Assembly: GCA_016210115.1 (NCBI GenBank)
Contig: JACQUW010000049.1
Coordinates: 1 to 55,510, forward strand
Origin: Deltaproteobacteria bacterium
Lineage (GTDB): Bacteria; Desulfobacterota; Binatia; UBA9968
Direction: 5' to 3'
Length of the DNA stretch: 55,510 bases
Shown here: positions 1-13,925 of the stretch, in pieces
Numbering within the stretch: position 1 is the stretch's first letter
Layout: each line of letters starts with the position of its first letter
Made by a program: the position numbers and the translations under genes
Notes under the pieces: model-generated
What the model saw: only the letters and a program-made list of their open reading frames with translations
Told to the model about the DNA's origin: nothing
The model's database searches: none

Positions 1-1098
1 ATCTCCGGGCGCGCGGCAGTGGCCGCACGGAAGCGCGTGGGTGTATACGTAATAGCCGTCAATATGGACGTTGGGAATGCGATAGGTGCCTGCCAGTTTT
101 TTCGTGCCTCCGAGTCCCACCTGGGGCTTGTAGGCCGCGTAAGCTCCTGAATCAAAGATTGCGCTCGCTTCCCACGCGAGAATCTCACCTTTCTTAGTAA
201 CACCTGCCTTGAGGTTGATAATGCTGGGATGCCGCGGGCTCGAAGCCAGAAATTCCTCCTGACGTGACATGACCATTTTCACAGGACGCCCTGATTTGGA
301 CGCGAGGAAGTAGCAGAGAGGCTCGTCTAAAACCATCCCCTTGCCGCCGAAATCACCTCCCACAAAGCTCGGAATGACGCGCACTCGTGTGATCGGAAGT
401 CCGGAGACTTCCGCCATGATGCTGCGGACTCGAAAGGGCACTTTGTCCGAGCTCCACACCGTCACATTACCGTCACGGCTGATATCAACCATGGCGGCGT
501 GCGGCTCGAGGTAGCCCTGATGCACGATCTGTGTTGTAAAGGTATGCTCGAACGTGAGTTCCGCCTGGGCGAATCCTTTAGAGAGGTCGCCTTTAGAATA
601 GGAATCATGGTAAAAAATGTTTGTGTGCTTCGCGGGAGCTGGAAGTCCCCCATAGGTGTGAAGGTTCTCGTGAACGAGGAGTGAGCTGTCTTTCATGGCC
701 TCTTTGACGTCGAGCACCGCGGGCAGCTCCTCATACTGAACATCGATAAGAGTTACAGCCTCCCGTGCCGTTTCCTCGTCTACCGCCGCCACCGCCGCCA
801 CTTTCTCGCCTATGAACCGCACTTCGTTTCGCGCCAAAATCGGAACGTCACGCACCCTTAAGCCGAGCAAAATATCCGGGACATCTTGCGCCGTAATGAC
901 TGCCTTGACGCCGGGAAGGGCCTCGGCCTTACGGGTGTCGATACTCACGATACGAGCATGCGGAAAAGGTGAGCGTTTGGCCAAGCCATAGAGCATGCCG
1001 GGCAGCATCACATCCGCCGTGTAAGCGGCTCCACCGGTGACTTTGGCTACCGCATCGATTCGGGGTACAGATTTCCCTACTACGTAGAAGTCAGACAT
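1..1098 (-). CDS. Xanthine dehydrogenase-family molybdopterin-binding subunit (partial, 3' end beyond window)
   Basis: Reading leftwards from an ATG at 1098 gives 366 codons without a stop up to the window edge, so only the N-terminal half is present. Residues about 15-130 match the a/b hammerhead domain of CoxL/XdhB-type proteins (PGVKAVITAQDVP, RNEVRFIGEKVAAVAA). The molybdopterin domain follows, with LEPHAAM, GGDFGGKG and a C-terminal GHCRAPGD, the usual Mo-pterin landmarks. The start is fixed by an AAGGAGG ribosome site 5 bases upstream. The family hydroxylates aldehydes, CO, purines or aromatic N-heterocycles together with FeS and FAD subunits; neither partner is visible here and the substrate cannot be told. 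It is divergent from the flavin oxidoreductase at 1485. Confidence 0.92.
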   Translation of the reverse strand, partial: MSDFYVVGKSVPRIDAVAKVTGGAAYTADVMLPGMLYGLAKRSPFPHARIVSIDTRKAEALPGVKAVITAQDVPDILLGLRVRDVPILARNEVRFIGEKVAAVAAVDEETAREAVTLIDVQYEELPAVLDVKEAMKDSSLLVHENLHTYGGLPAPAKHTNIFYHDSYSKGDLSKGFAQAELTFEHTFTTQIVHQGYLEPHAAMVDISRDGNVTVWSSDKVPFRVRSIMAEVSGLPITRVRVIPSFVGGDFGGKGMVLDEPLCYFLASKSGRPVKMVMSRQEEFLASSPRHPSIINLKAGVTKKGEILAWEASAIFDSGAYAAYKPQVGLGGTKKLAGTYRIPNVHIDGYYVYTHALPCGHCRAPGD

Positions 1099-1484
1099 CG
1101 AGGCCTCCTTCGCGGCAACGGCTGCGGACTTGTTATTGAGTTATGAGCAAGGAGAACACAACATTTCCGCAATGAAACGCGCGCCACAGCAACTCAACGC
1201 TTCACTACGGGAAGCGGGACAGGTGTGACGTGAGCAAACTTTGTGCCATGACGTTTCGACAGGAAACCTGCTTCGGTATGGGCTAGATTTCACTGTGGAG
1301 AAAAGAGGTATGAGATTTGTTAGCAAGATCACGGGAGTTCGCTACCCACGGAATCCGGCGAGAAGAAACCCGTAGAAAAGCTTCGAAATCCACATGAGAC
1401 CTAGCTGCGTTTTTTTCAAATGTTGGAAAACCACTGCTGCTAAGTTGCACGAGTAGGAATAGAGATCAGAGGAAAGATTCGAGC
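1099..1484. other. Intergenic region between divergent genes
   Basis: 386 bases separating the divergent molybdenum hydroxylase and flavin oxidoreductase genes. Short open frames occur on both strands but none has a ribosome site or family resemblance. Both promoters must lie here; I could not pick out a convincing -35/-10 pair, and there is no palindrome or repeat. Confidence 0.5.
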
Positions 1485-2672
1485 ATGAAATACCAAAAGC
1501 TGTTTACTCCTCTAACTATAAGAGGTCTTACTTTTCCGAACAGGATCATGAGAACGTCAATGGTTTCAGGCCTCGCAACAGAGGAAGGATTCGTCACCGA
1601 CGCCCTAAAGGAAAGATACCAGCGTGAAGCCGGAGGCGGGGCCGGATCAATCGTCGTCGAAGCCGCAGTGATTCTTCCGTCAAGGAGCTCGTACAATCTA
1701 CGAATCAGCGACGGGTCCTTCGTCGATGGGCTGAGACACCTCATGGATGCAATCCGCAAGGTGAATCCACAGCCCAAAGTCGGTATTCAGATCATGCACT
1801 TTCTGAAGATCGCGAGAAGCGGCTGGAGACAGAAAGTCGAGGATTTCAAGCCCGAAGAACTGCCCATCATTGTCGAGCAGCATGTAAAGGCCGCAGGCCG
1901 TGCCCTGTCGGCTGGATTCGATTTCATTGAAATTCACATGGCCCATGCTTACACCCTCTCATCGTTTCTCTCCCGGTCAAACAAAAGAAGCCATCCCTAC
2001 GGCGGCAGGCTTGAGAACCGCTTAAGACTGCCTATAGAGGTTTATCGAGCAGTGCGCGAGACTGTGGGCGATCGCTATCCTTTGGGTGTAAGAATCAACG
2101 GCGAGGATTTCACTATCGAGGGAAATACCCTGCTCCAAAGCACCCGGATCGCGAGAAGGCTTGCCCGGCTTGGCGTTGACTACATCAGCGTCTCCGCCGG
2201 TAGTCGCTTTGAAGACGCCGCGACGCCTGCGCCCAACACGCCGCCGGACCCTATGTCCGGGTACAGCGGCCACAGGATGAGTCCAGCCTGGTGGTTTCCC
2301 GACAGAACACATAGCCATCTGGCTGAAGCGATTCATAATTATGTGAGGGCTGGAGGATACGACGTTCCCATCGTGACCGTAGGAAAGATTCGAACTCCGC
2401 TTCAGGCTGAGCAGCTACTGGAGGAAAACAAGGCAGATATCATAGGCTTATGCCGCCCCTTGCTCTGCGATCCGGACTGGCCCATGAAGGCCAGGGAGGG
2501 CAGGGAAAAGGACATCGTGAAATGCACCGGCTGCAACTGGTGTCTCGAGGCTGACTCAAGATACGAAAAGGTGACCTGCTCCCGGTGGCCAAAGGGTGTC
2601 CTCGCCGCGCCGTCACCTTTTCTGCCGAGCATGGCCGGTCCTTCCGAGCTTCCGGAGGATGCGTCGCTGTAA
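1485..2672 (+). CDS. NADH:flavin oxidoreductase, Old Yellow Enzyme / dienoyl-CoA reductase-type
   Basis: 395 residues. The FMN TIM barrel begins at once (KLFTPLTIRGLTFPNRI). The family landmark is at 151-178: HMAHAYTLSSFLSRSNKR followed by PYGGRLENR. The usual substrate-binding H-x-x-H is H151/H154, with Y156 in the active-site loop. Near the C-terminus Cys347, Cys350, Cys353 and Cys365 form the C-x2-C-x2-C-x11-C pattern that binds a 4Fe-4S cluster in 2,4-dienoyl-CoA reductase-like members. The protein stops soon after it, so the FAD/NADH domain of FadH-type enzymes is absent and a separate electron donor is likely. A ribosome site (AGAGGAAAG) precedes the ATG. The substrate is unknown; an activated C=C bond is expected from the family. 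Confidence 0.9.
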   Translation: MKYQKLFTPLTIRGLTFPNRIMRTSMVSGLATEEGFVTDALKERYQREAGGGAGSIVVEAAVILPSRSSYNLRISDGSFVDGLRHLMDAIRKVNPQPKVGIQIMHFLKIARSGWRQKVEDFKPEELPIIVEQHVKAAGRALSAGFDFIEIHMAHAYTLSSFLSRSNKRSHPYGGRLENRLRLPIEVYRAVRETVGDRYPLGVRINGEDFTIEGNTLLQSTRIARRLARLGVDYISVSAGSRFEDAATPAPNTPPDPMSGYSGHRMSPAWWFPDRTHSHLAEAIHNYVRAGGYDVPIVTVGKIRTPLQAEQLLEENKADIIGLCRPLLCDPDWPMKAREGREKDIVKCTGCNWCLEADSRYEKVTCSRWPKGVLAAPSPFLPSMAGPSELPEDASL

Positions 2673-2683
2673 CTCCGCATAAT

Positions 2684-2725
2684 CTCCTCGCCCTTCACCG
2701 GAGGGAGAGGATAAAAGGTGAGGGT
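2684..2725. repeat. Degenerate CCCTC/GAGGG hairpin repeat
   Basis: Begins CTCCTCGCCCTTCACCGGAG and continues with GGGAGAGGAT and AGGTGAGGGTG. It has the same organisation as the better-preserved copies near 25135, 28040, 29210 and 50766. It lies between the oxidoreductase stop and the preferred start at 2759, so it is probably untranslated. Confidence 0.55.
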
Positions 2726-2758
2726 GGTGCGGTTTGGACATTGCCCGTCCTCACGTCG

Positions 2759-3121
2759 ATGAAATCCGGAAGAAAATCATTTCCGACGGTTGTAAACCTC
2801 TTCATCTACGGCACCCTGATGGACAAGTCCCAACTCTATCAGATCACGCTCAAGCATTTTCCCACCTCGCCCGCGATTCTCAAAGATTACAGGAAGCTGA
2901 TCTCGACCCTGGGCTACCCTTATATTGTCCCTTCAAAGGGCTCCACAGTTGACGGCCTGCTCATCAGAAATGTTGACGCGGCATCGTTGAAAAGGCTCGA
3001 CGAATACGAAGACGAAAGCCGGCTTTATTTTCGCAAACCAGTTATTGTCACAAGTGGCGGCAAGAAATACCCTTGCGAAGTTTACGTAGGCAACGAAAAA
3101 ATACTCCGCCCGCGATCTTAG
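2759..3121 (+). CDS. AIG2-like / gamma-glutamylcyclotransferase-fold protein
   Basis: 120 residues from the ATG at 2759. The frame stays open back to 2585, but that extension overlaps the previous gene and a repeat. The family signature is the YGTLMDKSQL loop near the N-terminus, and LDEYEDESRLYFRKPVIV carries the acidic residues at the catalytic Glu position. The C-terminus (PCEVYVGNEKIL) matches the usual end strand. Members cleave gamma-glutamyl amines or peptides, but many are uncharacterised, so the substrate is open. No strong ribosome site is visible. The gene converges with the nuclease pseudogene, whose stop (3118-3120) overlaps this gene's last bases. Confidence 0.8.
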   Translation: MKSGRKSFPTVVNLFIYGTLMDKSQLYQITLKHFPTSPAILKDYRKLISTLGYPYIVPSKGSTVDGLLIRNVDAASLKRLDEYEDESRLYFRKPVIVTSGGKKYPCEVYVGNEKILRPRS

Positions 3122-4872
3122 ACCCTTACACCCCGGGGCCGGCGAGAGCCATCTTTCATCGCTTTCGCCCATTCTCTGTCGGGAATAAGAATTTCTGGAA
3201 ATCCCATAAGGAGTATCTCCAATGACTGAGCAAACCCGTCCAGCCCAGGATATAATGTGGCCCGATTCATATTCATGCGATGCAATTTCCGCAAAATCTT
3301 CTTTCTAAGATCGGGCGGGTCGTTCTCTATTCGAATCTCCCAAAGATGATTTCCAAAATCCGGCTTTGAATCCGTTTCCGTCGCGAGAGCCGTGAGGTTT
3401 TCTTCAAAAGGAATTGAGATATCACCTGGACAAGGAAATGTTCCGTGCTGGATGACTAATCTCTCATTCAGCGTGTAAGCGTTTATGGGGCAAACAAACG
3501 GCTTCTTTGCCATGAACACGTCACGAAAAGTTTCAAGTTTGGTCACGTTCGTTTGTTCAGCAGAAGAAATGACCTGATATCCTGTCGGAGTGACTTGCAA
3601 CCATCCACCACCCGATCTAAGAATTTCCAGAAATTTTTGTTTGTTGTCAGAGATATCTTCGAATTGGCGAATGAGAAACAGCAGATCAGTCGTCCGGATT
3701 ATTAGGACGTTCAGTTTTTTGGCGTGATCGATTTGCTCGCCGGGAACTGCAGTCTCAAATCGCTCTTTGATCCCACCAACTGACATTTCGTTGTTTATAA
3801 TCAACACCCCGGACACCGAAGGAGACAGGCCGGCTCTTTCGCGATGTGAATCAACTTGGTTAACGTGTTCCCTCTTGATTCCGGCTTTTGTCCCCTTGAT
3901 TTACACGAATACAATAGCCTCGCCTGTATGCTCGTCGAGGATTTTCGCATCCTCCCGAAATTCCTCTGGTGCGTCCACCTCTAATGCAAAGAAACCTCGG
4001 AGGATAGCGACCACCACTCTTTCTTTAAGGATATCGCCAGAGGTGCTTAAGATCGCTTTATAATCCTTCCATGCTTGAATTTGACCTTCCCGCTCGGCAA
4101 TTTGCTTCTGTAAAGCCTCTATCTCTGAACCAAGCTTGTCCTCAGTTGCAAATTTGAATTCATCAAGCCACGCTGGAACTTCTCCGATTCGTTTTTGCCT
4201 GTAATCGAGGATCGCGCCGGATACTTCGGTGGCAATTAAGTTGAGGGTTACGACATCCCTTTTTGTGGTATGAAATGGAAGAAAGAAAACCCGATGGGTC
4301 CATTCAATTGCTACAGCCGTACCCCCAGATTCAGCAATAATCTGGAGTTGCTTTTCCCGGTTGTACGGTAACTCGAAAGCCGTGTTTACGACGCCATAAC
4401 CCTTCAAATATGGTCTGAATTCATCGCGTTTAGTGTTGAATATTGTCAGGCCGTCGATTGTCTGCCTCTTGTGTTTTGTTATTTCCAACGCGTTCAGGAT
4501 TCTTTTACATAAATCAGTGTCATCAATGTCCTGCGAATGCCAATCCCCTTGGGGTATTTTGTCGATAATAGACCCCACAAGAAAGCACACCCATCTCCCA
4601 TCTTCGATCATATTGAACACCTGTTTCTGCCGCCCTTGTAGAAGCGCTTTCTGGACCCGGACTTCTGCGTAACTTCGGTGGTAATCAATCTTTTCGAAGA
4701 TTCCTTGAGGAATGATTGCGCCGTCAGCCTGATCCAACGCCCCGTGGCTTTCTAAAGGCAGGAACTGTACCTGTGCATTACCTCCTACTGAGACCGGCGT
4801 ACCCGCTACTGGAAATCCCAAGGCATCGAACCCGTAAGCAATAATCCGTAGCTTCTTATTCGGCTTAGGCAT
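3118..4872 (-). pseudogene. PD-(D/E)XK nuclease with C-terminal half FRG domain, interrupted by TAA at 3901-3903
   Basis: Two open frames in the same register (3901-4872, 323 aa; and 3904 down to 3118) are separated only by one TAA. Before the stop the protein reads REDAKILDEHTGEAIVFV; after it, IKGTKAGIKREHVNQVDSHR. Joined, this is the nuclease core D-x(n)-V-[E]-I-K-G-T with the Glu codon replaced by a stop (GAA to TAA, one base). D308 or D313 would be the acidic partner and codon 326 the Lys. An N-terminal region of unknown function and a likely coiled coil (about 255-280) come first. After the nuclease core, GVLIINNEM and LNVLIIRTTDLLFLI continue the domain. The C-terminus (NERLVIQHGTF, MNMNRATLYPGLDGFAQSL) matches the second half of FRG domains; the FRG first half is missing. 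The GTG at 3816 is probably not a real start. It is the last gene of the defence operon, 18 bases after the helicase. Confidence 0.82.
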
Positions 4873-4890
4873 ATTCTTCTGCTAAAGTTA

Positions 4891-7683
4891 CTATCGATGC
4901 AGTCCGACCAGCGTGATATTCAACCCAATTCGTGATTGGCGGCTGGGCAGCCAGTTGTTTATTTCAGCTTCCAACGTGCCTTCAATTGCAGATCGAGCCT
5001 GCGCAACATCCACCGCTCCATTGAGTGAGCCTTCTCTTTCATCGGTCGGGAAATGCTGGAGTGTCCGGACTTCGCCTGTTGAAGGCTTGTACATCAGCGT
5101 AATGACTCGACTCTGGATGAGGCCGCGTTCATCTCGACGGCGCACGAGATAGCGCGCACAGACAGCGCCCGCCGCGAGATCTGAAACCTCACCGGTTAAC
5201 GCCGCAGATCGGATTTCCTCCAAGAGGGCGTCCACAAGCGGATGTCCGATACCGCCCAGCTCGCACGCGCGATTGCGGAGCGCAATGTCCCGGTCGAAAC
5301 AAACTTTTTCGTACCTGGGGAGCAGGCGATATTTGCGCTGCAACGCGTCGGGACAAATGAAGGTCCAAAATTCGCCTGCCGGGATGGCGCCGCCACCGAG
5401 CTTCAGGATCGCTGTCCGAACCCACTCCCCAAGCTCAGACAACGAATAGCGTCCTTCCAGTGTTCGATAATGCTCAAGATTGAATTGCCCGAGGTCTTGG
5501 GCGAGGCGATCCAGCGCTTCACGGGCACGCAGCGCCTCCTGGATCATGCGCTGGAGTTCTGTATCCGTCCGTCGATAATCCCGGTCCACGAGGGCGCGCT
5601 TGTAGAGATCCTGATAGTCAGGACGGCTTCCCAGGTAACCGAGAATATCGCTCCGAAAATCCTCCAATGGCTTTCCTTGCGCGTCAGTCTTGCCGATGGA
5701 TCGCGCGATATCATAGAGCTTATTCTCCAGCAGGCCGTAGATTTGCTCTTCAACCGTATCCTGCGCCAGCAAGTTATAAACCTGCACTGTTTCTTCCTGG
5801 CCATATCGGTGGATCCGGCCAATTCTCTGCTCGACAGCCATGGGGTTCCAGGGTAAGTCGTAGTTGAAAACAATGTGGCCGATTTGAAGATTGATGCCTT
5901 CCCCGCCCGCTGACGTGCTGATCAGAAACCGCGCGCCATCCTCATCCCAAAACGATTCCATGGCCGCGATCTTGTCCTCCAGCGGGCCGCCAACGATTCG
6001 CGCCATGCGCTGCGGTCCGTAGATTTTGCCTAATTCCTCAGACAGGAATTCAAGCGTGTCGCGGTACTGCGTGAAGATCACGAATCGCTCGTCTGGTTTT
6101 TCGCGGCACAGTTCACTAATAGCTCGGACCAGCGTATCGAAACGCCGATCGGTTCCCTTGGGGACTAGTTGGATCAGTTCCCGAACCTTCTCAATCTCCC
6201 GAGGGATATCAGCTTCGGCGTAGACGCCTTCTTCGGCTTCTTCGTCTCCGTCGAGCGACCAAGAAGTAGTCTCGTAGTCCTCTTCCATCCGCTTCAAAAG
6301 TCTCCGCCGAACGCGCAGGACATAGGCTTCGGCATCGACGTTATCGGTTGTCTGTTCGCCGAGAATGGCCCGAGCCACCTGCAGCATCTCGTCCTGAATC
6401 TTGAGGATTGCTTCGCTGTTGGACGCCCCCGACCGGCGTTTGGCTTCCAAGGCCAGTTGCTTACGCGCCAATAAGACGAGAAGGCGACGACGAAGAGCCT
6501 GGCGAATAGCACGCGGGCTGGACGACATGATCTTCTGAAAAGTGGCCATCACAAAGCCAATGGCACGCTGCTGACGGGTCGTCCGCGACTGATTGATCCC
6601 GGCGGCGTTGTACCCTTCACGAAGGTATTCACTCAGCCGGTCGTAGAATTCGCGCTCACGCGGTGCGAGTGGAAAACGCTCCGTGTGGACCTGACGGCGA
6701 CGGAAGATCGGATCTCCCTTTGCATCCGTTACTTCGCGCTTTGTACGCCGAATCATGACCCGTGCCAGCATGCCCCGGTGATCACCCAATTCGTCCGGGC
6801 TCGTAAAGAGCTGATCGTTAAGTAATTGGACCAAGGACCAGAACTGGAATGGATTACCTTGATGGGGAGTGGCTGACAGGAACAGTAGGTCCCGCGTATG
6901 GCTCCGCAGAGCCTCCGCTAGTTTGTAGTTTTGCGTCGTGACTGTTTTTTTTCCGGTCCGGGTTCGAGACAAGTGATGCGCTTCGTCAAAAACAATCACG
7001 TCCCACCTGGGCGCACCAAGCAACCGCTGGATCCTGCGGGACTGCTTGAGGGTATCAATAGACGCAATAACCCACGGGTGCGTCTCCCACGAAGCCGTTC
7101 CATAGTCATAAAAATCATGTCCAAGAATCGAACAATGCAGCCGGAAGCAATCGCGCAATTCATTCTGCCAGTTCTTCACCAAACCAGCCGGTGTAACGAT
7201 GAGAACCCGTTCGGCTTCACCTCGGGCGTTCAACTCTCGAAGAAGCATGCCCGTCTCGATCGTCTTCCCGAGCCCGACCTCATCTGCGATGAGACTACGC
7301 CGTTCAGCCATCGCAACCATGTCATGGACCAGCAGGATCTGATGAGGAAGGAGATTAACCCGGCTGGCCGATAGCTCCCCACCTGAATTCGAGTGCGCAA
7401 GGTCAATGGCAATCTGTTTAACTCTGTACGCTGTGGCGTCGTCCAATGGCCCTCCCATAAGCCGCTGCCACAGGTCTCCTGTTTTCTCCAAGAGCTCTAC
7501 TGGAAAGGCCTCCAACCTTCGGCCGTTCGGTGTGTCAAAGACCACATCGGCCTGGTAGAACCCTGCCGTCTCGGCGACACGCAACACCTCGCCAATCCCA
7601 AGCTCAGGATGGAAAGGAACGCGTACCTTGTCATTAGGCGCAATCGATGCCCTGACGTCGTAACTTAAAGCCTGTTCACTCAT
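4891..7683 (-). CDS. SNF2/HepA-type DNA helicase-translocase of the defence operon
   Basis: 930 residues and intact. ATPase lobe 1 has DEVGLGKT (Walker A, 134-141), DEAHHL (233-238) and SATP (270-273). A long helical insert spans about 380-500, with an acidic patch near 478-492. Lobe 2 has FVIFTQYRDT, STSAGGEGINLQ and QRIGRIHRYGQ (motif VI, 619-629). The C-terminal 280 residues are an unassigned extension. The layout matches RapA/HepA-like helicases and DISARM DrmD-type proteins, which move along DNA rather than unwinding it. Its ATG overlaps an upstream TGA (ATGA at 7680-7683), so translation is coupled to the preceding frame. Inferred role: invader-DNA sensing or translocation alongside the methylase and nuclease. 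Confidence 0.93.
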   Translation of the reverse strand: MSEQALSYDVRASIAPNDKVRVPFHPELGIGEVLRVAETAGFYQADVVFDTPNGRRLEAFPVELLEKTGDLWQRLMGGPLDDATAYRVKQIAIDLAHSNSGGELSASRVNLLPHQILLVHDMVAMAERRSLIADEVGLGKTIETGMLLRELNARGEAERVLIVTPAGLVKNWQNELRDCFRLHCSILGHDFYDYGTASWETHPWVIASIDTLKQSRRIQRLLGAPRWDVIVFDEAHHLSRTRTGKKTVTTQNYKLAEALRSHTRDLLFLSATPHQGNPFQFWSLVQLLNDQLFTSPDELGDHRGMLARVMIRRTKREVTDAKGDPIFRRRQVHTERFPLAPREREFYDRLSEYLREGYNAAGINQSRTTRQQRAIGFVMATFQKIMSSSPRAIRQALRRRLLVLLARKQLALEAKRRSGASNSEAILKIQDEMLQVARAILGEQTTDNVDAEAYVLRVRRRLLKRMEEDYETTSWSLDGDEEAEEGVYAEADIPREIEKVRELIQLVPKGTDRRFDTLVRAISELCREKPDERFVIFTQYRDTLEFLSEELGKIYGPQRMARIVGGPLEDKIAAMESFWDEDGARFLISTSAGGEGINLQIGHIVFNYDLPWNPMAVEQRIGRIHRYGQEETVQVYNLLAQDTVEEQIYGLLENKLYDIARSIGKTDAQGKPLEDFRSDILGYLGSRPDYQDLYKRALVDRDYRRTDTELQRMIQEALRAREALDRLAQDLGQFNLEHYRTLEGRYSLSELGEWVRTAILKLGGGAIPAGEFWTFICPDALQRKYRLLPRYEKVCFDRDIALRNRACELGGIGHPLVDALLEEIRSAALTGEVSDLAAGAVCARYLVRRRDERGLIQSRVITLMYKPSTGEVRTLQHFPTDEREGSLNGAVDVAQARSAIEGTLEAEINNWLPSRQSRIGLNITLVGLHR

Positions 7684-9527
7684 GTAAGATTAAACCCCAC
7701 AAGAAAAAATTCTGTCCCGTTTGGTCCTTCCTGCCGTATGGGAGTTCCGAAGATTGGTCGCAAGCTCATGTGCCTCCTGAGACCAGCCTCGACCCAGAAA
7801 TCATCCGAGCGCTGAAGCCGCTGATGGAAGACTAGCTGGACGTCGGTTCCCATGCTGGAGTACAGGTCATTTGCCCGAGAAGCCAAAACGTTGTGAATAA
7901 AATTTCCAATGTGTTCGAAACGGCACACAACAGCATTTCCTTCAGTGTCTGATCCTCCTCTGCGATGATACCTTGGAGCACTGTGCTTAGAGCTAGCAGT
8001 TGGCGTGGGGCGAACATATCAGCCCAATTTCGGTAATTATGCTTTATCATCTGATTGGTGTTGTATCCCTCAGGAATTGCGCTCTTCGGGTAAGGCAACT
8101 TATCTTTATGCTGGTCCCACAAGGCTTCTGCACGTTGCAGCCTCCGCATGTCAGAAACGCTGAAGCGCTTGAAGAACTTTCCGCCGTCCGAGACCAGAAG
8201 ACACGCAGCTTTTACTGTCTCTCGCGCGGTTACACTTTTCTGGTGGGTCGTCCCAAAAGAGGGATCGCTCTCACGAGTGTTAAAAAACGTGACCTGGCTG
8301 TCATGATCCTCAGACTCTTCATCGTATGCAACGCACAGGTAGGCTTGAAGCGCATAGGGTCGAATCGGCAGTCGCTGATGCTGAGGCAAGGTCCGAATGC
8401 TGGCAATAATGTCATCCTGTTGACCGCAAGAACATCGGAACTTTCCTTTCTGGGGCACGTTCCCCTTTCTGGGGTCGTAGCTATAGTGGCAGCTCGGGCA
8501 GGTTACCTCCTCCTCAGGTAATGGTCCACGCCATTGCCACACGGCTTCACACGATGGGCAAAATAACACTGCCAGAGCAACGCTCTTCTTCTGCTTCGTC
8601 GCACTGGGCACTTGCATGCGCACCTGTTTCTCACAATGAGGACAAGGGACATTGGCTTGCCACATGGCTCCGCGCCCGCGCGCCTTCGGGGGCTCTGGAG
8701 CATAACTCCAAAGACTTGTAGGTCTTCCTTCCCCCCCACTACCCCGGGGAGCATTAACCATCAGAGCCGGTTCTGCGATAAGGGACGCAAGCTCGACTTC
8801 CCAATCAAAAGTCTTTCGACAGGCTGGGCACATTGCGTCACGATGATAACGAATCTTTGGTGCTTTTTGCAAGGATATAGTCCGTAAACAGCGGGACCTC
8901 GCGACGGCAATTTTGATCAGTGCAGATTGCTGATCTGACCCAAAACGTGTAGATGACATCGGCTTCGAGATTGTCGCCCACATCTGTCTTGTACAAACTG
9001 AGGAGAGTCTCTTTGAGTGGTCGCCCCTCGTTCCATGCGACGGGTCGCGCGGCGAGTCGCTCGAAAGCTGCTTTCAGCGCGTCCAGGTCTACAGGCTCGA
9101 TTTCGGTCTTGACGATAAACCAAGCGACCGGATTTAAGTCAATGCCGATAACGCGGCAACCAAGGCGAAGGGCTTCAATAACAGTGGTTCCTCCGCCCAT
9201 GAACGGATCCAAAATAGTTTTGTCCTTAGTGTCTGGGTCATTCGAATGGTCTTTATAGAATTCCTCCATGAGATCGGTCGGGGTGCCATCGCCTTGCACC
9301 GCTGGCTTGAGTGTCCCCAAGAGGATGGCGCGGAACACGCAGGAGGCCCTACGGGCGAACCATTTGTGCATCTGGTAGATGGGTTTGAAGGAGTTACGTT
9401 CCGGGACGGCCAGCTGGTTGATTTCAACGATTGGGAACCCGACTTCGATCGCCCGCCTCCCCTGCATGAGCGCCGGCGAGATTGCGGAGTCTGTTGATTG
9501 AAGAGTAGGCGGCAATTGCGTGTTCAT
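7680..9527 (-). pseudogene. DUF1156-type Zn-ribbon adenine-specific DNA methyltransferase, frameshifted and truncated
   Basis: The first frame (9527-8838) has the DUF1156 hallmark MHKWFARR (53-60) and SAM motif I DPFMGGGTT (107-115), then runs into DYILAK and ends in nonsense. The match continues one base shifted as APKIRYHRDAMCPAC; the switch is at an A5 run (T5 at 8864-8868), and A4 would restore ILAKAPKIRYH. The second frame holds Zn-ribbon pairs (CPAC, CPHC, CPSC twice) and the family segment NYRNWADMFAPRQLLAL, then stops at 7832. The expected C-terminal 250-300 residues with motif IV (DPPY) are missing. A third stretch, back in the first frame (7928-7680), ends in an ATGA overlap with the helicase, so it is probably the remnant of the original C-terminus. 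It starts in an ATGA overlap with the PIN gene. Catalytically dead as read, unless the shift is an assembly error. Confidence 0.8.
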
Positions 9528-10042
9528 GACCTTGAAGGAAGCTTTACGTCTGAAGGTGCATAGACCGTAATCTCTTTAATGGCACCGAACCGTCCGTCCG
9601 CTGAGGCTAAGGCGTCGGCCTCCAGTCGGAGGGCCATTGCGGCGATCAATGAGTCGTTCGTCAACAACCCGAACCGTTCCTGGATCTCAAGAGCTTTGTC
9701 CAGAAGATCGCTCTCATGACAGGGTTCAAACGCCAGGCCGAGAGTCACGAGGGCCTTGATCTTATCTCGATACATGGTCAGCCCTTTGACCACTTCCGGT
9801 TTCGCCGCAAGCTGCCGAGCGGGATTCGTCCCGCGGACGTGTCCGAGCATGATAGCTTCTGTGACCATCAATCGATGCATGGTTTCCTGCCACACGGGCT
9901 GGGGCAATACCCCGGTCACATCGCGTCCTTCAATGCGACGCAGGAGCCGCTGGGCTTGCAGAGAGGCCCCTTGTTCCGCGTAGATCAGAACATTGGTGTC
10001 GAGCACGCAAAGGCTCCCGCTGGGGATATCATCAAGGTTCAT
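9524..10042 (-). CDS. PIN-domain (VapC-like) ribonuclease inside the defence operon
   Basis: 172 residues from an ATG that overlaps the antitoxin stop (ATGA at 10039-10042); the frame continues upstream but overlaps that gene. PIN acidic residues are at LDTNVLIYAE (near residue 17), PVWQET, LLTNDSLIAA and ASADGRF, the standard four-Asp/Glu metal site of VapC ribonucleases. Its own TGA overlaps the methyltransferase ATG (9524-9527). With the ribbon-helix-helix gene before it, this is a type II toxin-antitoxin pair co-transcribed between the PglZ and methylase genes. Whether it acts as a toxin or as a working nuclease of the system cannot be told. Confidence 0.88.
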   Translation of the reverse strand: MNLDDIPSGSLCVLDTNVLIYAEQGASLQAQRLLRRIEGRDVTGVLPQPVWQETMHRLMVTEAIMLGHVRGTNPARQLAAKPEVVKGLTMYRDKIKALVTLGLAFEPCHESDLLDKALEIQERFGLLTNDSLIAAMALRLEADALASADGRFGAIKEITVYAPSDVKLPSRS

Positions 10043-10281
10043 AACTCCCACATATCCTCTTCGAGCACATGGCGAAGCTGGTCCGGCGGGATCTTCATGG
10101 GTCGTTCGCAAAAGAGGTGATACGCCATCTTCCGTTCCTTCGGCGTCGCCGCATCCTTGCGAAGATATTCCACGAGTGCATCCTGGATCAGATCGCTAAG
10201 AGGCCGCCCCTCCTCGGCGGCGCGCCGTTTCGCCAGCCGCATAATGTCTTCTTCAATTAGCGTGCCGATTTTTTGTTTCAT
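10039..10281 (-). CDS. Ribbon-helix-helix antitoxin, partner of the operon's PIN protein
   Basis: 80 residues. The N-terminus KQKIGTLIEEDIMRLAKRRA followed by EEGRPLSDLIQDALVEYL fits a CopG/RHH fold: one strand for DNA binding, then two helices. The C-terminal tail (about 45-80), rich in charged and hydrophobic residues, would wrap the PIN toxin. The ATG lies 29 bases inside the end of pglZ, and the stop overlaps the PIN start by 4 bases. RHH antitoxins usually repress their own operon; here there is no separate promoter, so any autoregulation would act at the main promoter near 13900 (inference). Confidence 0.82.
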   Translation of the reverse strand: MKQKIGTLIEEDIMRLAKRRAAEEGRPLSDLIQDALVEYLRKDAATPKERKMAYHLFCERPMKIPPDQLRHVLEEDMWEL

Positions 10282-11287
10282 GTTGTGTCTCCTTTGGGCC
10301 CAGCACTAACCAGGGTGTTAACATCTCCATGAGACTGAGCCCGCCATGCCGATAGATTGAGTTACTCGGTGATGTCGCTTGCGGGCGGTTGTGGACGCGA
10401 CCAGCTATCACCGCCAGCCGGCGCGCAGGGTCAATCCATAGGCCAGGCCTTTTCTCCGGCAACTCTTCTGCCGAAGAAAACTCGCGGTACCGCCTGCCTT
10501 CAAGAGGCCGATCGACTCCGTTTAATCTCGGCTCACTTAGACCTGGACCTAAGAAGATGTAACCGTGATCACTTGTAACAAGAACCGGGCGTGCCTGCGG
10601 CAGTTTTTGAACCGTGCGTATCCAGACGGTCTGGAGCATGTCCCAGATGGAGTCAAATAATGCTGCTGTGGCCGCAAGCGTATCCATGAACCGCATGTCG
10701 GGAAATCGCATCCATAGCAACACGGTTTCTGTTCCTTCCGGGATTCTGATTTGATCGGTGGGCTGCCTTATCCAATGAGCTTGGATTCCTTGTTCGCGGA
10801 GCTCTCGACGACCGGGAAGATCCGAAGGCGAAATCGGCGGAAGGCCAAGCCCCATCCGCTGGCCTATGAAGATCTCCGTTTCGCTCGGCACGGCGGCGAA
10901 GCCGTAGCTTTGCTCCAATATGGGCCGGCCAGAGGCGGCAGCCAATTCTGCGAGCCGAGGAAGCTCACGGATGGAACACCCATCCAGAATCACGACCGAT
11001 GCGCCGGGGTATTGGTCTAAAAAGGCTCGAATACTGCGATTTGGCGGCGGCGCTGCGGCAAGCTCATCGTAAAGTGACTCGCCCGCTAGGGTCAGCAGCG
11101 TCTCCCGATGATGGACGAGAGTTTCTCCCTGAAGCAGGTATTCGGCCGGCTTCTGCCCGACAGCCCGGTACCGGTCCATCGTCCAAACCTCGGTCATGAG
11201 CCAGTTTATCAGTCGAGGCAGTCGGAATCCGGGCTGAGTCAGCTCATCCAATAGCGCGCGATCAAGTACTGGGCCTTGCACGCTCAT
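10253..11287 (-). CDS. pglZ: PglZ-domain protein (alkaline-phosphatase superfamily)
   Basis: 344 residues from an ATG at 11287 that overlaps the ATPase stop (ATGA). A longer frame back to 11404 lies wholly inside that gene and is rejected. PglZ landmarks: VVILDGCSIRELP (D102 region, first metal ligand), LVTSDHGYIFL (238-242, T-S-D-H-G) and YRHGGLSLMEMLTPWLVL (HGG at 314-316). PglZ is shared by BREX, Pgl and related phage-defence systems and is thought to act as a phosphatase or nuclease-like effector; its exact reaction is unsettled. At 344 aa it is shorter than BREX PglZ (about 800 aa) and holds little beyond the core. Intact. Confidence 0.9.
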   Translation of the reverse strand: MSVQGPVLDRALLDELTQPGFRLPRLINWLMTEVWTMDRYRAVGQKPAEYLLQGETLVHHRETLLTLAGESLYDELAAAPPPNRSIRAFLDQYPGASVVILDGCSIRELPRLAELAAASGRPILEQSYGFAAVPSETEIFIGQRMGLGLPPISPSDLPGRRELREQGIQAHWIRQPTDQIRIPEGTETVLLWMRFPDMRFMDTLAATAALFDSIWDMLQTVWIRTVQKLPQARPVLVTSDHGYIFLGPGLSEPRLNGVDRPLEGRRYREFSSAEELPEKRPGLWIDPARRLAVIAGRVHNRPQATSPSNSIYRHGGLSLMEMLTPWLVLGPKETQHETKNRHAN

Positions 11288-13890
11288 GCGTCTTCGTCTC
11301 GCTTCCGCACGACCTGAAGCCGCGCCGAGTAGTTGCCCTGCGGCAATTGAGGCAACTGCTCGCATTTGGCTTCGACTTCCGCTTTCGTCATCGGTCCGGG
11401 ACATATCAGCTCGATTTGCACGTCGAGACTGCCTCGTCCGCTAATGCCTCCTCGCACACCAGAACTAAAACCCGATAGATCGACGTCCTGCGCATTTGCC
11501 AGGATTCGGAAGCTCACCTGTTGGATCCCCGCACTACCGACATCGACAAGTCGCGCGGCGATCTGTTGTCGCAAATCTCCCGGAGAGCGAGAGAACGGGG
11601 TTGCCAACTCATCGGTATCAACTCCAGGCGGTACTGCCGTTATCGGCGGCGCAGAGACTTCGGAAGTGCCGCCGCTCGGCTGCTCGGAAGGAATCGGCAA
11701 CGGTCTCTGCACAGCCGGTGGAATACTGGCTTGAGGCCAAGGGGCACTGAGAACGGCCGCGTCCAACTCCGATGGCGTCAAGGCTACATATTCGCCGCAG
11801 AAGCTACGGCCTCGCGGTCCAAGCAAGCCCAGTGGGCGCGCATCTCTATCTTCGACAAGTAGCAGGATCGCGCCTGAGATCATGTCTTCTTTAAGTGGAA
11901 CTGGGAAGCCGAGCGTGGTCCTATAGAGTCGATCCACTTGCTCGACGGGCTGTCCGATCAAGCCAGGCAGCCGGTCCCTCAGGTGCTCCACGAAATAGGT
12001 TTGGGGATAAACTTGGGTGCGGAGGAAAGTTACAACGTCCTCACGGGTAGAGGCCTGCCCAAGTGGTTCAATCTCGAATGCCGTCCCCTCCGCTGTCTCA
12101 TCCCAGCGTTCGACTCTAATGTAAACCAGTCCTCCTTGCTTAAGTGTGTCGAGAACGAGCTTCCGTTCACGAGCGGCGATCTTTTCGTAACGGTCCCTCC
12201 GCTCAGCCGTCCGAGCTGTCCCGGCCAGGCCCGTGGCGGCTGCACACCGTCTCGCGGCAGATAATAAGTCCGAGTTGATCATGTGGTTCGCCTGGTCTTC
12301 GCGTGGCTCCAGTAACAGAATCTGATTGCGATATTCAGTCCCATGATAAAGATTGTGCCGTTCTGGATTCGAGAGCCGGCGCGGCGCAAGAACAAACCGA
12401 GGGGCTCTTTTCATACCGCTTAGAGCGGCGCGCGTCATCTCGAAATCGGTATGAATTACGGCTTGCTGTGATTCCTTGAATAACTCCGTTAGCCAAAGCC
12501 TGCCGATCTCCTGTCGCGCGGCTTCATCACTCCCTGACCGAAGCGCCTCCAGTTCCACCTTTGCTTCTTCGTTTTCCTCGATGTCGAAATAAAACCGGTC
12601 CTCTTCCTTGTGAAAATAAGAACCGTACCGGCGAAATGCCTCAAGCGTGGCTTCGAACTGGTTCGGATCGCATCCGGGCTCCGCAACGTGATGGATTAGC
12701 TCCTCCTTGGAGAGTCCCCGGGCTCGCCCTGGCACCAGGCTCGCCAGCAAAGTGGCCGAGGCAATTGCTTCGGCGTATGGTTGTCTGCTCAGATCACGGA
12801 GATTGCCGGCCGCGCAAGAAATGGTGGTGCCTGCCGGATCGAGATCCTGGAGGCGATCGGCGCAGGCAGAATCAGTCAACTTGCAGTGCGCCGCGGTGAG
12901 CAATCTGGATTCTGGTCCTGATGCATCGAGCATTGCGCCGAGAAGCCCAAGCGCTCCTCGGGTGCCCTGAAAAGCTTCGCCTCCGCCCATTCGCTCGAAG
13001 ATCAGATCGATGAGCTCGGGCAAAAAGGGAAAAGAAGATTTCAGACGCGCGAGGTAGTCATCAGTGACCTGTAAGCCCATCCGCCGCCATGTATTGAGGT
13101 ACGATTGAGTAAGATCTTCGGCGGCTTTCCGGTCGTAGGAATCAGCGTTGGAAAACAATCGGTGCCGGACAATGGCGGCGCGTTCCTCTGCTTTTCGAAA
13201 TCGAAGTTCTAATCGCTGGATTCGCTTTAAAGTGATACCGGGTTCCACCGCCCCGCTGTAGATAGCTGCGACCAGGGTGACATTAGGGCTGCGATTGGAT
13301 TCTTCTGAAATCATCTGAAGAAAACTCAGGTTTTGACTTCGCCGACCGCTGTCGAGAATGTTGGTGATTCCTCGTTCAAGTTCATCAAAGATCAGGACAA
13401 CGTGCCGGTCCTGAACCGCCGTGCGGAACTCTCCGAGGGACGGAGCGTGGTTCTCGGCCCACGTTACGCCAAGTTTCTGGCCTAGATATGTCCAAAGGGA
13501 ATCAAAGGGCAGGTACTGATCGGTGAATTTTTCCACGACCACAATAACGTCTTTGGGCGGACTCCACGAATATCCGTGCGATTCCATCCACGGCTTCGCC
13601 ACATCCGGATTTATAAAAACATGGTAGATAACGAGCAGGTCGTGTGACTTGCCTTGACCCTTCACGCCTTCTGCTAAAATGACCCCCGGCGAGTCGCCGC
13701 TGCCAAGCTGATTTCGATCGAACCTCCGGCTGAGTGACCTAAGCACTGCGTGAAGGTCTTCAGTTGGATAGGTGAGATTTAGAAACTGAGATGGATCGCG
13801 CTCAATACAAGTTTTGGGACCCGATCTCAATCTCTCAAGATCAACAAAACTGTCAATCTTGCTGGCCGAGGAGTATCGTTTCTTAAGCAT
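11284..13890 (-). CDS. DUF499/BrxC-like P-loop ATPase, first gene of the defence operon
   Basis: 868 residues. After a short basic start, FLNLTYPTEDLHAVLRSL leads to Walker A GVKGQGKS (75-82) and Walker B VVLIFDELE (about 164-172). Then comes a helical AAA-lid region with FPFLPELIDLIFERM and FQGTRGALGLLGAML, typical of DUF499 and BrxC/PglY ATPases. A middle alpha/beta region and a Pro/Ser-rich linker (about 740-775) precede a C-terminal domain ending in YSARLQVVRK. These large ATPases are core parts of BREX and DUF499-DUF1156 defence clusters. The start is supported by a strong promoter whose expected transcription start falls at the ATG; no Shine-Dalgarno is present, so a leaderless mRNA is inferred. 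Confidence 0.88.
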   Translation of the reverse strand: MLKKRYSSASKIDSFVDLERLRSGPKTCIERDPSQFLNLTYPTEDLHAVLRSLSRRFDRNQLGSGDSPGVILAEGVKGQGKSHDLLVIYHVFINPDVAKPWMESHGYSWSPPKDVIVVVEKFTDQYLPFDSLWTYLGQKLGVTWAENHAPSLGEFRTAVQDRHVVLIFDELERGITNILDSGRRSQNLSFLQMISEESNRSPNVTLVAAIYSGAVEPGITLKRIQRLELRFRKAEERAAIVRHRLFSNADSYDRKAAEDLTQSYLNTWRRMGLQVTDDYLARLKSSFPFLPELIDLIFERMGGGEAFQGTRGALGLLGAMLDASGPESRLLTAAHCKLTDSACADRLQDLDPAGTTISCAAGNLRDLSRQPYAEAIASATLLASLVPGRARGLSKEELIHHVAEPGCDPNQFEATLEAFRRYGSYFHKEEDRFYFDIEENEEAKVELEALRSGSDEAARQEIGRLWLTELFKESQQAVIHTDFEMTRAALSGMKRAPRFVLAPRRLSNPERHNLYHGTEYRNQILLLEPREDQANHMINSDLLSAARRCAAATGLAGTARTAERRDRYEKIAARERKLVLDTLKQGGLVYIRVERWDETAEGTAFEIEPLGQASTREDVVTFLRTQVYPQTYFVEHLRDRLPGLIGQPVEQVDRLYRTTLGFPVPLKEDMISGAILLLVEDRDARPLGLLGPRGRSFCGEYVALTPSELDAAVLSAPWPQASIPPAVQRPLPIPSEQPSGGTSEVSAPPITAVPPGVDTDELATPFSRSPGDLRQQIAARLVDVGSAGIQQVSFRILANAQDVDLSGFSSGVRGGISGRGSLDVQIELICPGPMTKAEVEAKCEQLPQLPQGNYSARLQVVRKRDEDA

Positions 13891-13896
13891 GGAGCA

Positions 13897-13925
13897 AGAA
13901 TACAGAAGAATTCAAGACATGTCAA
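13897..13925 (-). promoter_or_regulatory. Sigma70-type promoter of the defence operon with overlapping palindrome
   Basis: On the minus strand TTGACA (13925-13920), a 17-base spacer and TATTCT (13902-13897) form a near-consensus promoter. The expected start, about 7 bases downstream, is base 13890, the A of the first ATG. An 8-bp perfect palindrome GACATGTC (13916-13923), flanked by TTC-AA and AA-GAA, covers the -35 edge and could be a repressor site. Confidence 0.7.

What the first reader, a model, noticed from the sequence alone, without database searches (positions are those of the whole stretch)
3118..13890. Probable antiviral operon combining DUF499-like ATPase, PglZ, RHH-PIN, DUF1156 methylase, SNF2 helicase and PD-(D/E)XK-FRG nuclease
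Seen: seven genes in one direction with 4-base ATGA overlaps at four junctions (11284, 10039, 9524, 7680), a 29-base overlap at 10253-10281 and an 18-base gap before the nuclease. Known: PglZ, BrxC/DUF499 ATPases, DUF1156 methylases and SNF2 helicases each occur in BREX, DISARM or DUF499-DUF1156 defence clusters. The set here does not match those types as I know them: no PglX, BrxL or BrxA/B, and no DrmA/DrmB/DrmC. The short 344-residue PglZ, the embedded PIN pair and the terminal nuclease-FRG protein may define an undescribed type. Inferred function: methylation-based self/non-self restriction of phage.
Basis: partly seen in the sequence, partly recalled or inferred. Interest (0 to 1): 0.93.

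Follow-up and report, generated by a model that had tools for sequence, protein, structure and literature searches.

The report
Broken BREX-like operon with embedded toxin
This stretch is a decayed copy of a recently described BREX-related operon, a kind predicted to defend bacteria against phages, and many of its relatives in diverse bacterial phyla keep a two-gene pair resembling an antitoxin and a toxin at one fixed place inside it, where the pair likely serves as a backup against infection.

Summary
The gene order is real, but two of the seven "genes" are broken and one does not belong. By content the operon fits the Type-3 BR (BREX-Related) systems published in January 2026 (PMC12839542): DUF499-type ATPase, stand-alone PglZ, DUF1156 methylase, nuclease-free SNF2 helicase, small iSTAND-like protein. 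Here the methylase has a frame change and has lost its DPPY half; one deletion fuses it to the tail of the iSTAND-like gene. The terminal nuclease has an in-frame stop in its catalytic motif and runs into an FRG-gene remnant. Its family was found in 0 of 47 genomes with related loci, so it is a neighbour. The new part is the RHH-PIN pair. It lies downstream of PglZ in 27 of 52 related loci, plus the window; in the PglZ tree these fall in two clades covering at least eight phyla. Its divergence tracks PglZ (r = 0.84). It stays open in 8 of 9 loci with a damaged core gene, and is absent from 60 of 60 fetched HmaB-type loci. The paper's main text describes no such pair and says Type-3 BR lacks backup nucleases or keeps them in limited instances. 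Likely role: built-in suicide or retention module. New variant of a known kind.

The parts
11284..13890 (-). DUF499/HmaC-like AAA ATPase, 868 aa, open; Walker A GVKGQGKS visible
   Evidence: PADLOC HmaC 2e-21; NCBIfam DUF499_antiphage 5.6e-14, far under its cut-off; Pfam DUF499 only 0.022
10253..11287 (-). Short stand-alone PglZ, 344 aa, open
   Evidence: PADLOC PglZ 3.7e-5; family of ~333 aa, some members carry PF08665; DGCS, TSDHG, HNR, RHGG motifs invariant in 25 rows
10039..10281 (-). RHH protein, 80 aa, antitoxin-like
   Evidence: Weak Pfam DUF6364 0.0012 and RHH_5 0.023, under their cut-offs; PHROG Arc-like repressor 4.4e-5
9524..10042 (-). PIN-domain protein, 172 aa, open, acidic residues kept
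   Evidence: Pfam PIN 1.5e-11; D15, E53, D112, D149 invariant in 23 of 23 rows
7907..9527 (-). Remnant of DUF1156 adenine methylase, N-terminal half in two frames, motif I present, DPPY half lost
7680..7922 (-). Remnant (residues 64-143) of the small conserved iSTAND-like protein 'c4'
   Evidence: fold of an intact relative
4891..7683 (-). SNF2 helicase, 930 aa, no nuclease domain found
   Evidence: Pfam SNF2-rel 5.1e-22 and Helicase_C 5.2e-19; PADLOC BrxH 2.3e-100, HmaA 8e-98; RapA in PDB 6.2e-38
13897..13925 (-). Promoter-like site TTGACA-17-TATTCT just before the ATPase start
   Evidence: 5 such sites found against 6.4 expected in shuffles, so weak
3484..4872 (-). Neighbouring nuclease gene, broken by a stop at 3901-3903; judged not part of the system (3' limit approximate)
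   Evidence: fold of a relative
3214..3477 (-). FRG-like C-terminal remnant

Best explanation
The locus is a broken copy of a Type-3 BREX-Related (BR) operon, and it belongs to a branch in which an RHH-PIN gene pair sits downstream of PglZ and is predicted to work as a built-in suicide or retention switch. Shown here: a recurring order ATPase - PglZ - RHH - PIN - methylase - small iSTAND-like protein - SNF2 helicase; overlapping or nearly touching genes at most PglZ-RHH-PIN junctions; divergence of the pair that tracks the core genes; loss of the methylase's catalytic half and of the N-terminal part of the iSTAND-like gene in the window. Inferred, following PMC12839542 and the BREX work it cites: in intact relatives the methylase marks self DNA, the ATPase with the iSTAND-like protein scans for foreign DNA, the helicase moves along DNA, and PglZ nicks it. 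Inferred here and untested: RHH holds the PIN RNase inactive and represses transcription; when an invader disables the complex, or the operon is lost, RHH falls and PIN cuts RNA to stop growth. In the window, restriction and modification are presumably off, while RHH, PIN, ATPase, PglZ and helicase remain open frames.
For: Core content matches the published Type-3 BR description. RHH and PIN downstream of PglZ in 27 of 52 loci, the methylase in view behind them in 21 of those 27; in the PglZ tree all 25 RHH-PIN rows lie in two groups, 12 of 12 and 13 of 17 rows, the other 4 rows having unreadable junctions. Distance correlations: RHH-PIN 0.90, PIN with core genes 0.69-0.84, core with core 0.73-0.94. 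RHH overlaps PIN by 4 bases in 20 of 27 loci. PIN acidic residues invariant in 23 of 23 rows; dN/dS of PIN against L001 0.07 (dS high). RHH and PIN both full length in 8 of 9 loci with a damaged core gene. This PIN family in 0 of 60 fetched HmaB-type loci. In the window's own genome a second DUF499-methylase locus carries a PIN of the same family, 36% identical.
Confidence: 0.62

Rival explanations
1. The RHH-PIN pair is an ordinary VapBC-like addiction module that entered the operon early and is kept because losing it harms the cell, with no part in immunity.
For: Two-gene antitoxin-first layout; free RHH-PIN pairs exist in genomes without neighbouring BR genes; the pair stays open in 8 of 9 decayed loci; the PglZ-methylase junction also takes Fic, DUF3800 and another PIN-RHH pair.
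Against: Fixed place in two clades spanning many phyla, divergence tracking PglZ, and absence from 60 of 60 HmaB-type loci are more than a drifting passenger would be expected to give.
Confidence: 0.27
2. RHH and PIN chiefly regulate the operon: RHH as repressor, PIN trimming the operon's own messenger RNA.
For: Arc-like repressor match of RHH; central place and tight gene overlaps; PIN acidic residues kept.
Against: Nothing here shows operator sites or RNA targets; many related systems lack the pair.
Confidence: 0.08
3. One reading: an undescribed seven-gene defence type whose effector is a PD-(D/E)XK-FRG nuclease.
For: The nuclease gene follows the helicase by 18 bases on the same strand, and a relative's C domain has a FokI-like fold.
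Against: Nuclease family in 0 of 47 genomes with related loci and 1 of 395 phylum genomes, the own one; relatives carry no FRG part; the rest matches a published subtype.
Confidence: 0.03

Closest known systems
Type-3 BR (BREX-Related) systems, Rakesh and Krishnan 2026, PMC12839542 (abstract, sections 18, 29, 33, 40, part 1 of 35, and passages seen)
   Same: DUF499-type ATPase, DUF1156 methylase with doubled CxxC motifs in relatives, helicase without nuclease, stand-alone PglZ, small iSTAND-like gene
   Different: A resident RHH-PIN pair downstream of PglZ, not described in the main text; the window copy has lost methylase and iSTAND-like function
Type-1 BR / Hma (HmaA, HmaB, HmaC)
   Same: Helicase, methylase and ATPase are homologous
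   Different: PglZ present, no nuclease domain found on the helicase, extra small gene, RHH-PIN
BREX (types 1-6)
   Same: PglZ, BrxC-like ATPase, BrxH-like helicase
   Different: No BrxA, BrxB, BrxL or PglX gene recognised by PADLOC among the window's genes beyond noise; PglZ much shorter
VapBC toxin-antitoxin pairs
   Same: Small RHH gene overlapping a PIN gene, antitoxin first
   Different: PIN of ~170 aa; its profile matches no solved structure at E 0.01; fixed inside a BR operon

Membership tests
Type-3 BR | DUF499-type AAA ATPase | tested here: met
   PADLOC HmaC 2e-21, DUF499 1.5e-10; weak in Pfam
Type-3 BR | Stand-alone PglZ without fusions | tested here: met
   344 aa, family ~333 aa, some members with PF08665; window protein itself only weak hits
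Type-3 BR | DUF1156 N6-adenine methylase gene | tested here: met
   Present as a remnant: DUF1156 1.2e-6 and motif I; DPPY half lost. Intact in relatives such as L001, L008, L011. Met by descent, not as a working gene
Type-3 BR | SNF2 helicase without fused nuclease | tested here: met
   930 aa; Pfam shows helicase domains only
Type-3 BR | iSTAND protein (82% of taxa in the paper) | tested here: inconclusive
Type-3 BR | ATPase in the Type-3 clade of the DUF499 tree | not tested
   Published tree and accession lists not available here
Hma / Type-1 BR | Helicase with C-terminal nuclease (79% of taxa in the paper), no PglZ | tested here: not met
   No nuclease domain on the 930-aa helicase; PglZ present
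BREX | BrxA/BrxB/BrxL and PglX-type genes | tested here: not met
   Only noise-level hits: BrxA 0.046, PglXI 0.0075, among the nine window reading frames scanned
DISARM | DrmA, DrmB, DrmC with DrmD or DrmMI | tested here: not met
   Only the helicase matches DrmD/DrmA profiles; 338.8 bits against the NCBIfam DrmD cut-off of 610
VapBC toxin-antitoxin | Overlapping RHH and PIN genes with conserved PIN acidic residues | tested here: met
   RHH assignment by profile is weak
VapBC toxin-antitoxin | PIN toxic alone and neutralised by RHH | not testable with these tools
   Needs expression experiments

The most novel reading that the evidence does not exclude
A large branch of Type-3 BR systems has a resident RHH-PIN suicide switch: the pair is a working part of the immune machine, inherited with it across many phyla and translated in step with PglZ and the methylase, so that sabotage of the complex by a phage, or loss of the operon, frees the RNase and kills or stalls the cell. 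The same junction is filled elsewhere by another PIN-RHH pair and by Fic enzymes, which would make it a dedicated effector slot.
Probability: 0.33. Interest if true: 0.72.

Novelty: new variant of a known kind. Interest (0 to 1): 0.5.

Why it matters
Type-3 BR was described in 2026 as relying on PglZ with few or no backup nucleases. A conserved PIN RNase with an antitoxin-like partner in two large branches would add an RNA-cutting arm, and gives a clear test of whether toxin-antitoxin pairs can be integral parts of restriction-type immunity rather than passengers. The broken window copy and the separately broken L013, L002 and L049 also show methylase and iSTAND-like gene damaged together, a hint that the iSTAND-like protein is needed for restriction.

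Tried and rejected
Seven-gene type with a nuclease-FRG effector: rejected. In one search I gave 48 of 52 loci (47 genomes), leaving out L015, L032, L035 and L039; the tool warns that an empty answer without a positive genome in the set is weak. The same model did ring in the own genome.

Viruses and plasmids: 14 viral stretches matched the PglZ pattern and 0 of 14 encoded a relative; no plasmid record matched the window PglZ. Insertion sequence at the deletion point: only short 16-19-nt repeats found. Profiles of nuclease and PIN matched no solved structure; PglZ gave only a short tail match to response regulators, E 0.036. c4: no Foldseek match at E 0.001.

Counts (read by hand): pair present in 27 of 52; readable but without this pair in 21 of 52 (11 with PglZ next to methylase: L023, L026, L028, L030-L035, L038, L039; another PIN in L027, L047, L052; Fic in L036, L037; DUF3800 in L041; a gene without Pfam hit in L020; L019, L024, L029 unclear); 4 of 52 end too soon (L005, L007, L009, L015; L007 shows the first half of RHH, L015 has 0.4 kb left without a hit). 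L004 has a 1,608-aa gene between PglZ and RHH. Methylase, whole or partial, is in view behind the pair in 21 of 27. Damaged-core count: 9 of 28 loci, window included (window, L002, L012, L013, L022, L044, L049, L050, L051); L003, where no methylase shows in the last 2.1 kb, was set aside as unclear; L012 and L044 are frame breaks only, which may be base errors; L055 was dropped as a duplicate of L008. The distance test left out L013, L049, L050, L051. The tree left out PglZ pieces under 180 aa and includes one duplicate pair counted among the 25 (L008, L055). The spacing script picks the start codon nearest the upstream stop, which favours tight spacing. The 60 HmaB-type loci (L099-L158) are 60 places chosen from the list (72 of 395 genomes positive), many cut by contig ends; one (L156) may itself be PglZ-linked. 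The last line ('62 of 62') is a slip of my script: its per-locus lists show PIN only in L088 and L089, both found through the PIN search. dS was saturated or undefined for most pairs, and no ratio was obtained for the methylase remnant.

Full report
OBSERVATION. ATPase, PglZ-like, RHH, PIN and SNF2 genes are single open frames. The methylase and the terminal nuclease are not. Region 7680-9527 holds methylase residues 9-228 in one frame (9503-8859), residues 223-539 in another (8878-7907), and then residues 64-143 of a different small protein (7922-7683), measured against L001. Against L001 about 1.7 kb is missing, including the DPPY motif at residue 645. Region 3118-4872 is one frame with a TAA at 3901-3903 inside the catalytic motif; intact relatives exist, about 440 aa long, and end before the FRG-like tail. 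That tail matches only the end of PADLOC PDC-S15 profiles.

KNOWN SYSTEM. Rakesh and Krishnan 2026 (PMC12839542; I saw the abstract, sections 18, 29, 33 and 40, part 1 of 2 of section 35, and search passages) define Type-3 BR systems by DUF499 ATPase, N6-methylase, nuclease-free helicase, stand-alone PglZ and, in 82% of taxa, an iSTAND. The window operon fits that content. The paper says that Type-3 BR neighbourhoods lack conserved stand-alone nucleases (section 33) and that Type-3 BR either lacks auxiliary and backup nucleases or retains them in limited instances (section 40). A search of its main text found no RHH, VapBC or Fic; PIN RNases are called less commonly observed (and passages). 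Its supplements could not be read here, so cases may be listed there. PMC13326643 (passages only) repeats that type 3 lacks an endonuclease. PMC7641849 and PMC3710099 (passages only) describe DUF499-methylase-helicase operons near PIN-GNAT-EVE genes or with HEPN fusions, not this arrangement. Searches behind the statement that I found the pair nowhere in print: all in one open-access library.

THE RHH-PIN PAIR. A scan of one genome per species gave 52 loci. RHH and PIN lie downstream of PglZ in 27 of 52; 21 of 52 have a readable stretch without them; 4 of 52 end too soon. In the PglZ tree the 25 RHH-PIN rows, window and one duplicate included, fall in two groups: 12 of 12 rows (Verrucomicrobiota, Lentisphaerota, Bacteroidota and two unnamed bacteria), and 13 of 17 rows (Acidobacteriota, Methylomirabilota, Nitrospirota, Pseudomonadota, Thermodesulfobacteriota), the other four having unreadable junctions. 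None of the remaining 23 rows has the pair. The tree is rooted at the midpoint only. Distance correlations: PIN-PglZ 0.84, RHH-PIN 0.90, PIN with the five core genes 0.69-0.84, RHH with them 0.65-0.86, core with core 0.73-0.94, each p 0.001 by permutation; shared descent alone can give such values, so they show joint inheritance, not function. RHH overlaps PIN by ATGA in 20 of 27 loci; PglZ and RHH are within -60 to +25 bases in 23 of 27; PIN and methylase in 14 of 21. PIN residues D15, E53, D112 and D149 are invariant in 23 of 23 rows. This PIN family is in 0 of 60 fetched HmaB-type loci of the phylum. In the phylum 18 of 395 genomes have a PIN match at E 1e-10; besides the BR-linked ones these include a PIN in a second DUF499-methylase locus of the window's own genome (L088, 36% identity; HmaB 2e-101, HmaC 1.9e-89; no helicase in the stretch seen), one beside a DUF499-like ATPase (L089), and pairs or single PINs with no BR gene nearby. 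An independent sample of 327 genomes of the Verrucomicrobiota-side phylum gave 7 PglZ matches, 3 of them strong, all three already among the RHH-PIN loci.

DECAY. In 9 of 28 RHH-PIN loci (window included) at least one core gene is damaged: window, L002, L012, L013, L022, L044, L049, L050, L051. RHH and PIN are both full length in 8 of these 9 (L050 has a truncated PIN), and the helicase in 7 of 7 where it is in view. Over all 28 loci RHH is full length in 27 and PIN in 27. In window, L002, L013 and L049 the methylase is truncated or gone together with the N-terminal part of c4; L051, with a whole c4 and no methylase, is the exception. L013 has break points different from the window's and also lacks the N half of PglZ. 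Losing modification and the iSTAND-like protein in one step would be safe for the cell if that protein is needed for restriction; this is inference.

OTHER FILLINGS. L027 and L047 carry a different PIN followed by a FitA-like RHH (reverse order), L052 the start of such a PIN, L036 and L037 a Fic protein, L041 a DUF3800 protein. Loci with the pair can carry further genes beside it: DUF3800 (L016), AbiEii (L025), Schlafen-like (L042), a phosphoesterase-NACHT protein (L004), an OLD-like ATPase (L006). So the junction is a cargo site, which weakens the claim that RHH-PIN is essential but fits toxin-like effectors being favoured there.

HOST. The genome has 8.35 Mb in 431 contigs, completeness 99.19, contamination 8.94. 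A same-phylum genome, G093, has a PglZ identical to that of L005, a record titled Thermodesulfobacteriota. Ten other window proteins sampled are mostly metabolic or transport genes, none a known defence family. Base errors cannot be excluded for the single stop or the frame change, but would not explain the fusion deletion.

VERDICT. A relic of a published kind of system, in a branch with a conserved RHH-PIN pair that I found nowhere described. New variant of a known kind.

Noticed in passing
L088 (G000:C195:15000-27966), 5402-12870: A second DUF499-methylase locus in the window's own genome: HmaB-like methylase, PIN of the same family, two small frames, HmaC-like ATPase; upstream a Fic piece, a Ppl-like PHP-ATPase and a Schlafen-type gene.
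   Followed up: partly
L111 (G000:C244:1-14900), 31-12271: A further DUF499 locus of the own genome (helicase, methylase, ATPase order); its methylase lies in two overlapping frames, so it may be broken too.
   Followed up: no
window 3118-4872; family alignment A3: Nuclease family of about 440 aa without Pfam names: predicted class-I amidotransferase-like N domain with invariant Trp and Cys joined to a FokI-like nuclease domain.
   Followed up: partly
L013, 1045-2822: A close relative decayed on its own: first ~117 residues of methylase fused to the last residues of c4, and the N half of PglZ missing.
   Followed up: yes
L004, 11095-15921: A 1,608-aa phosphoesterase-NACHT protein inserted between PglZ and RHH.
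   Followed up: no
L036 11064-12116; L037 11076-12140; L148 768-1829: Fic proteins at the PglZ-methylase junction of Type-3-like loci, and a related Fic just upstream of an HmaB-type methylase.
   Followed up: no
L002, 705-11072: Permuted order: tail of c4, helicase, ATPase, PglZ, RHH, PIN, then a PHP-ATPase-like gene; methylase not found.
   Followed up: no
window 13887-13925: Promoter-like site whose second hexamer ends six bases before the ATPase start codon, so a leaderless message is possible.
   Followed up: no
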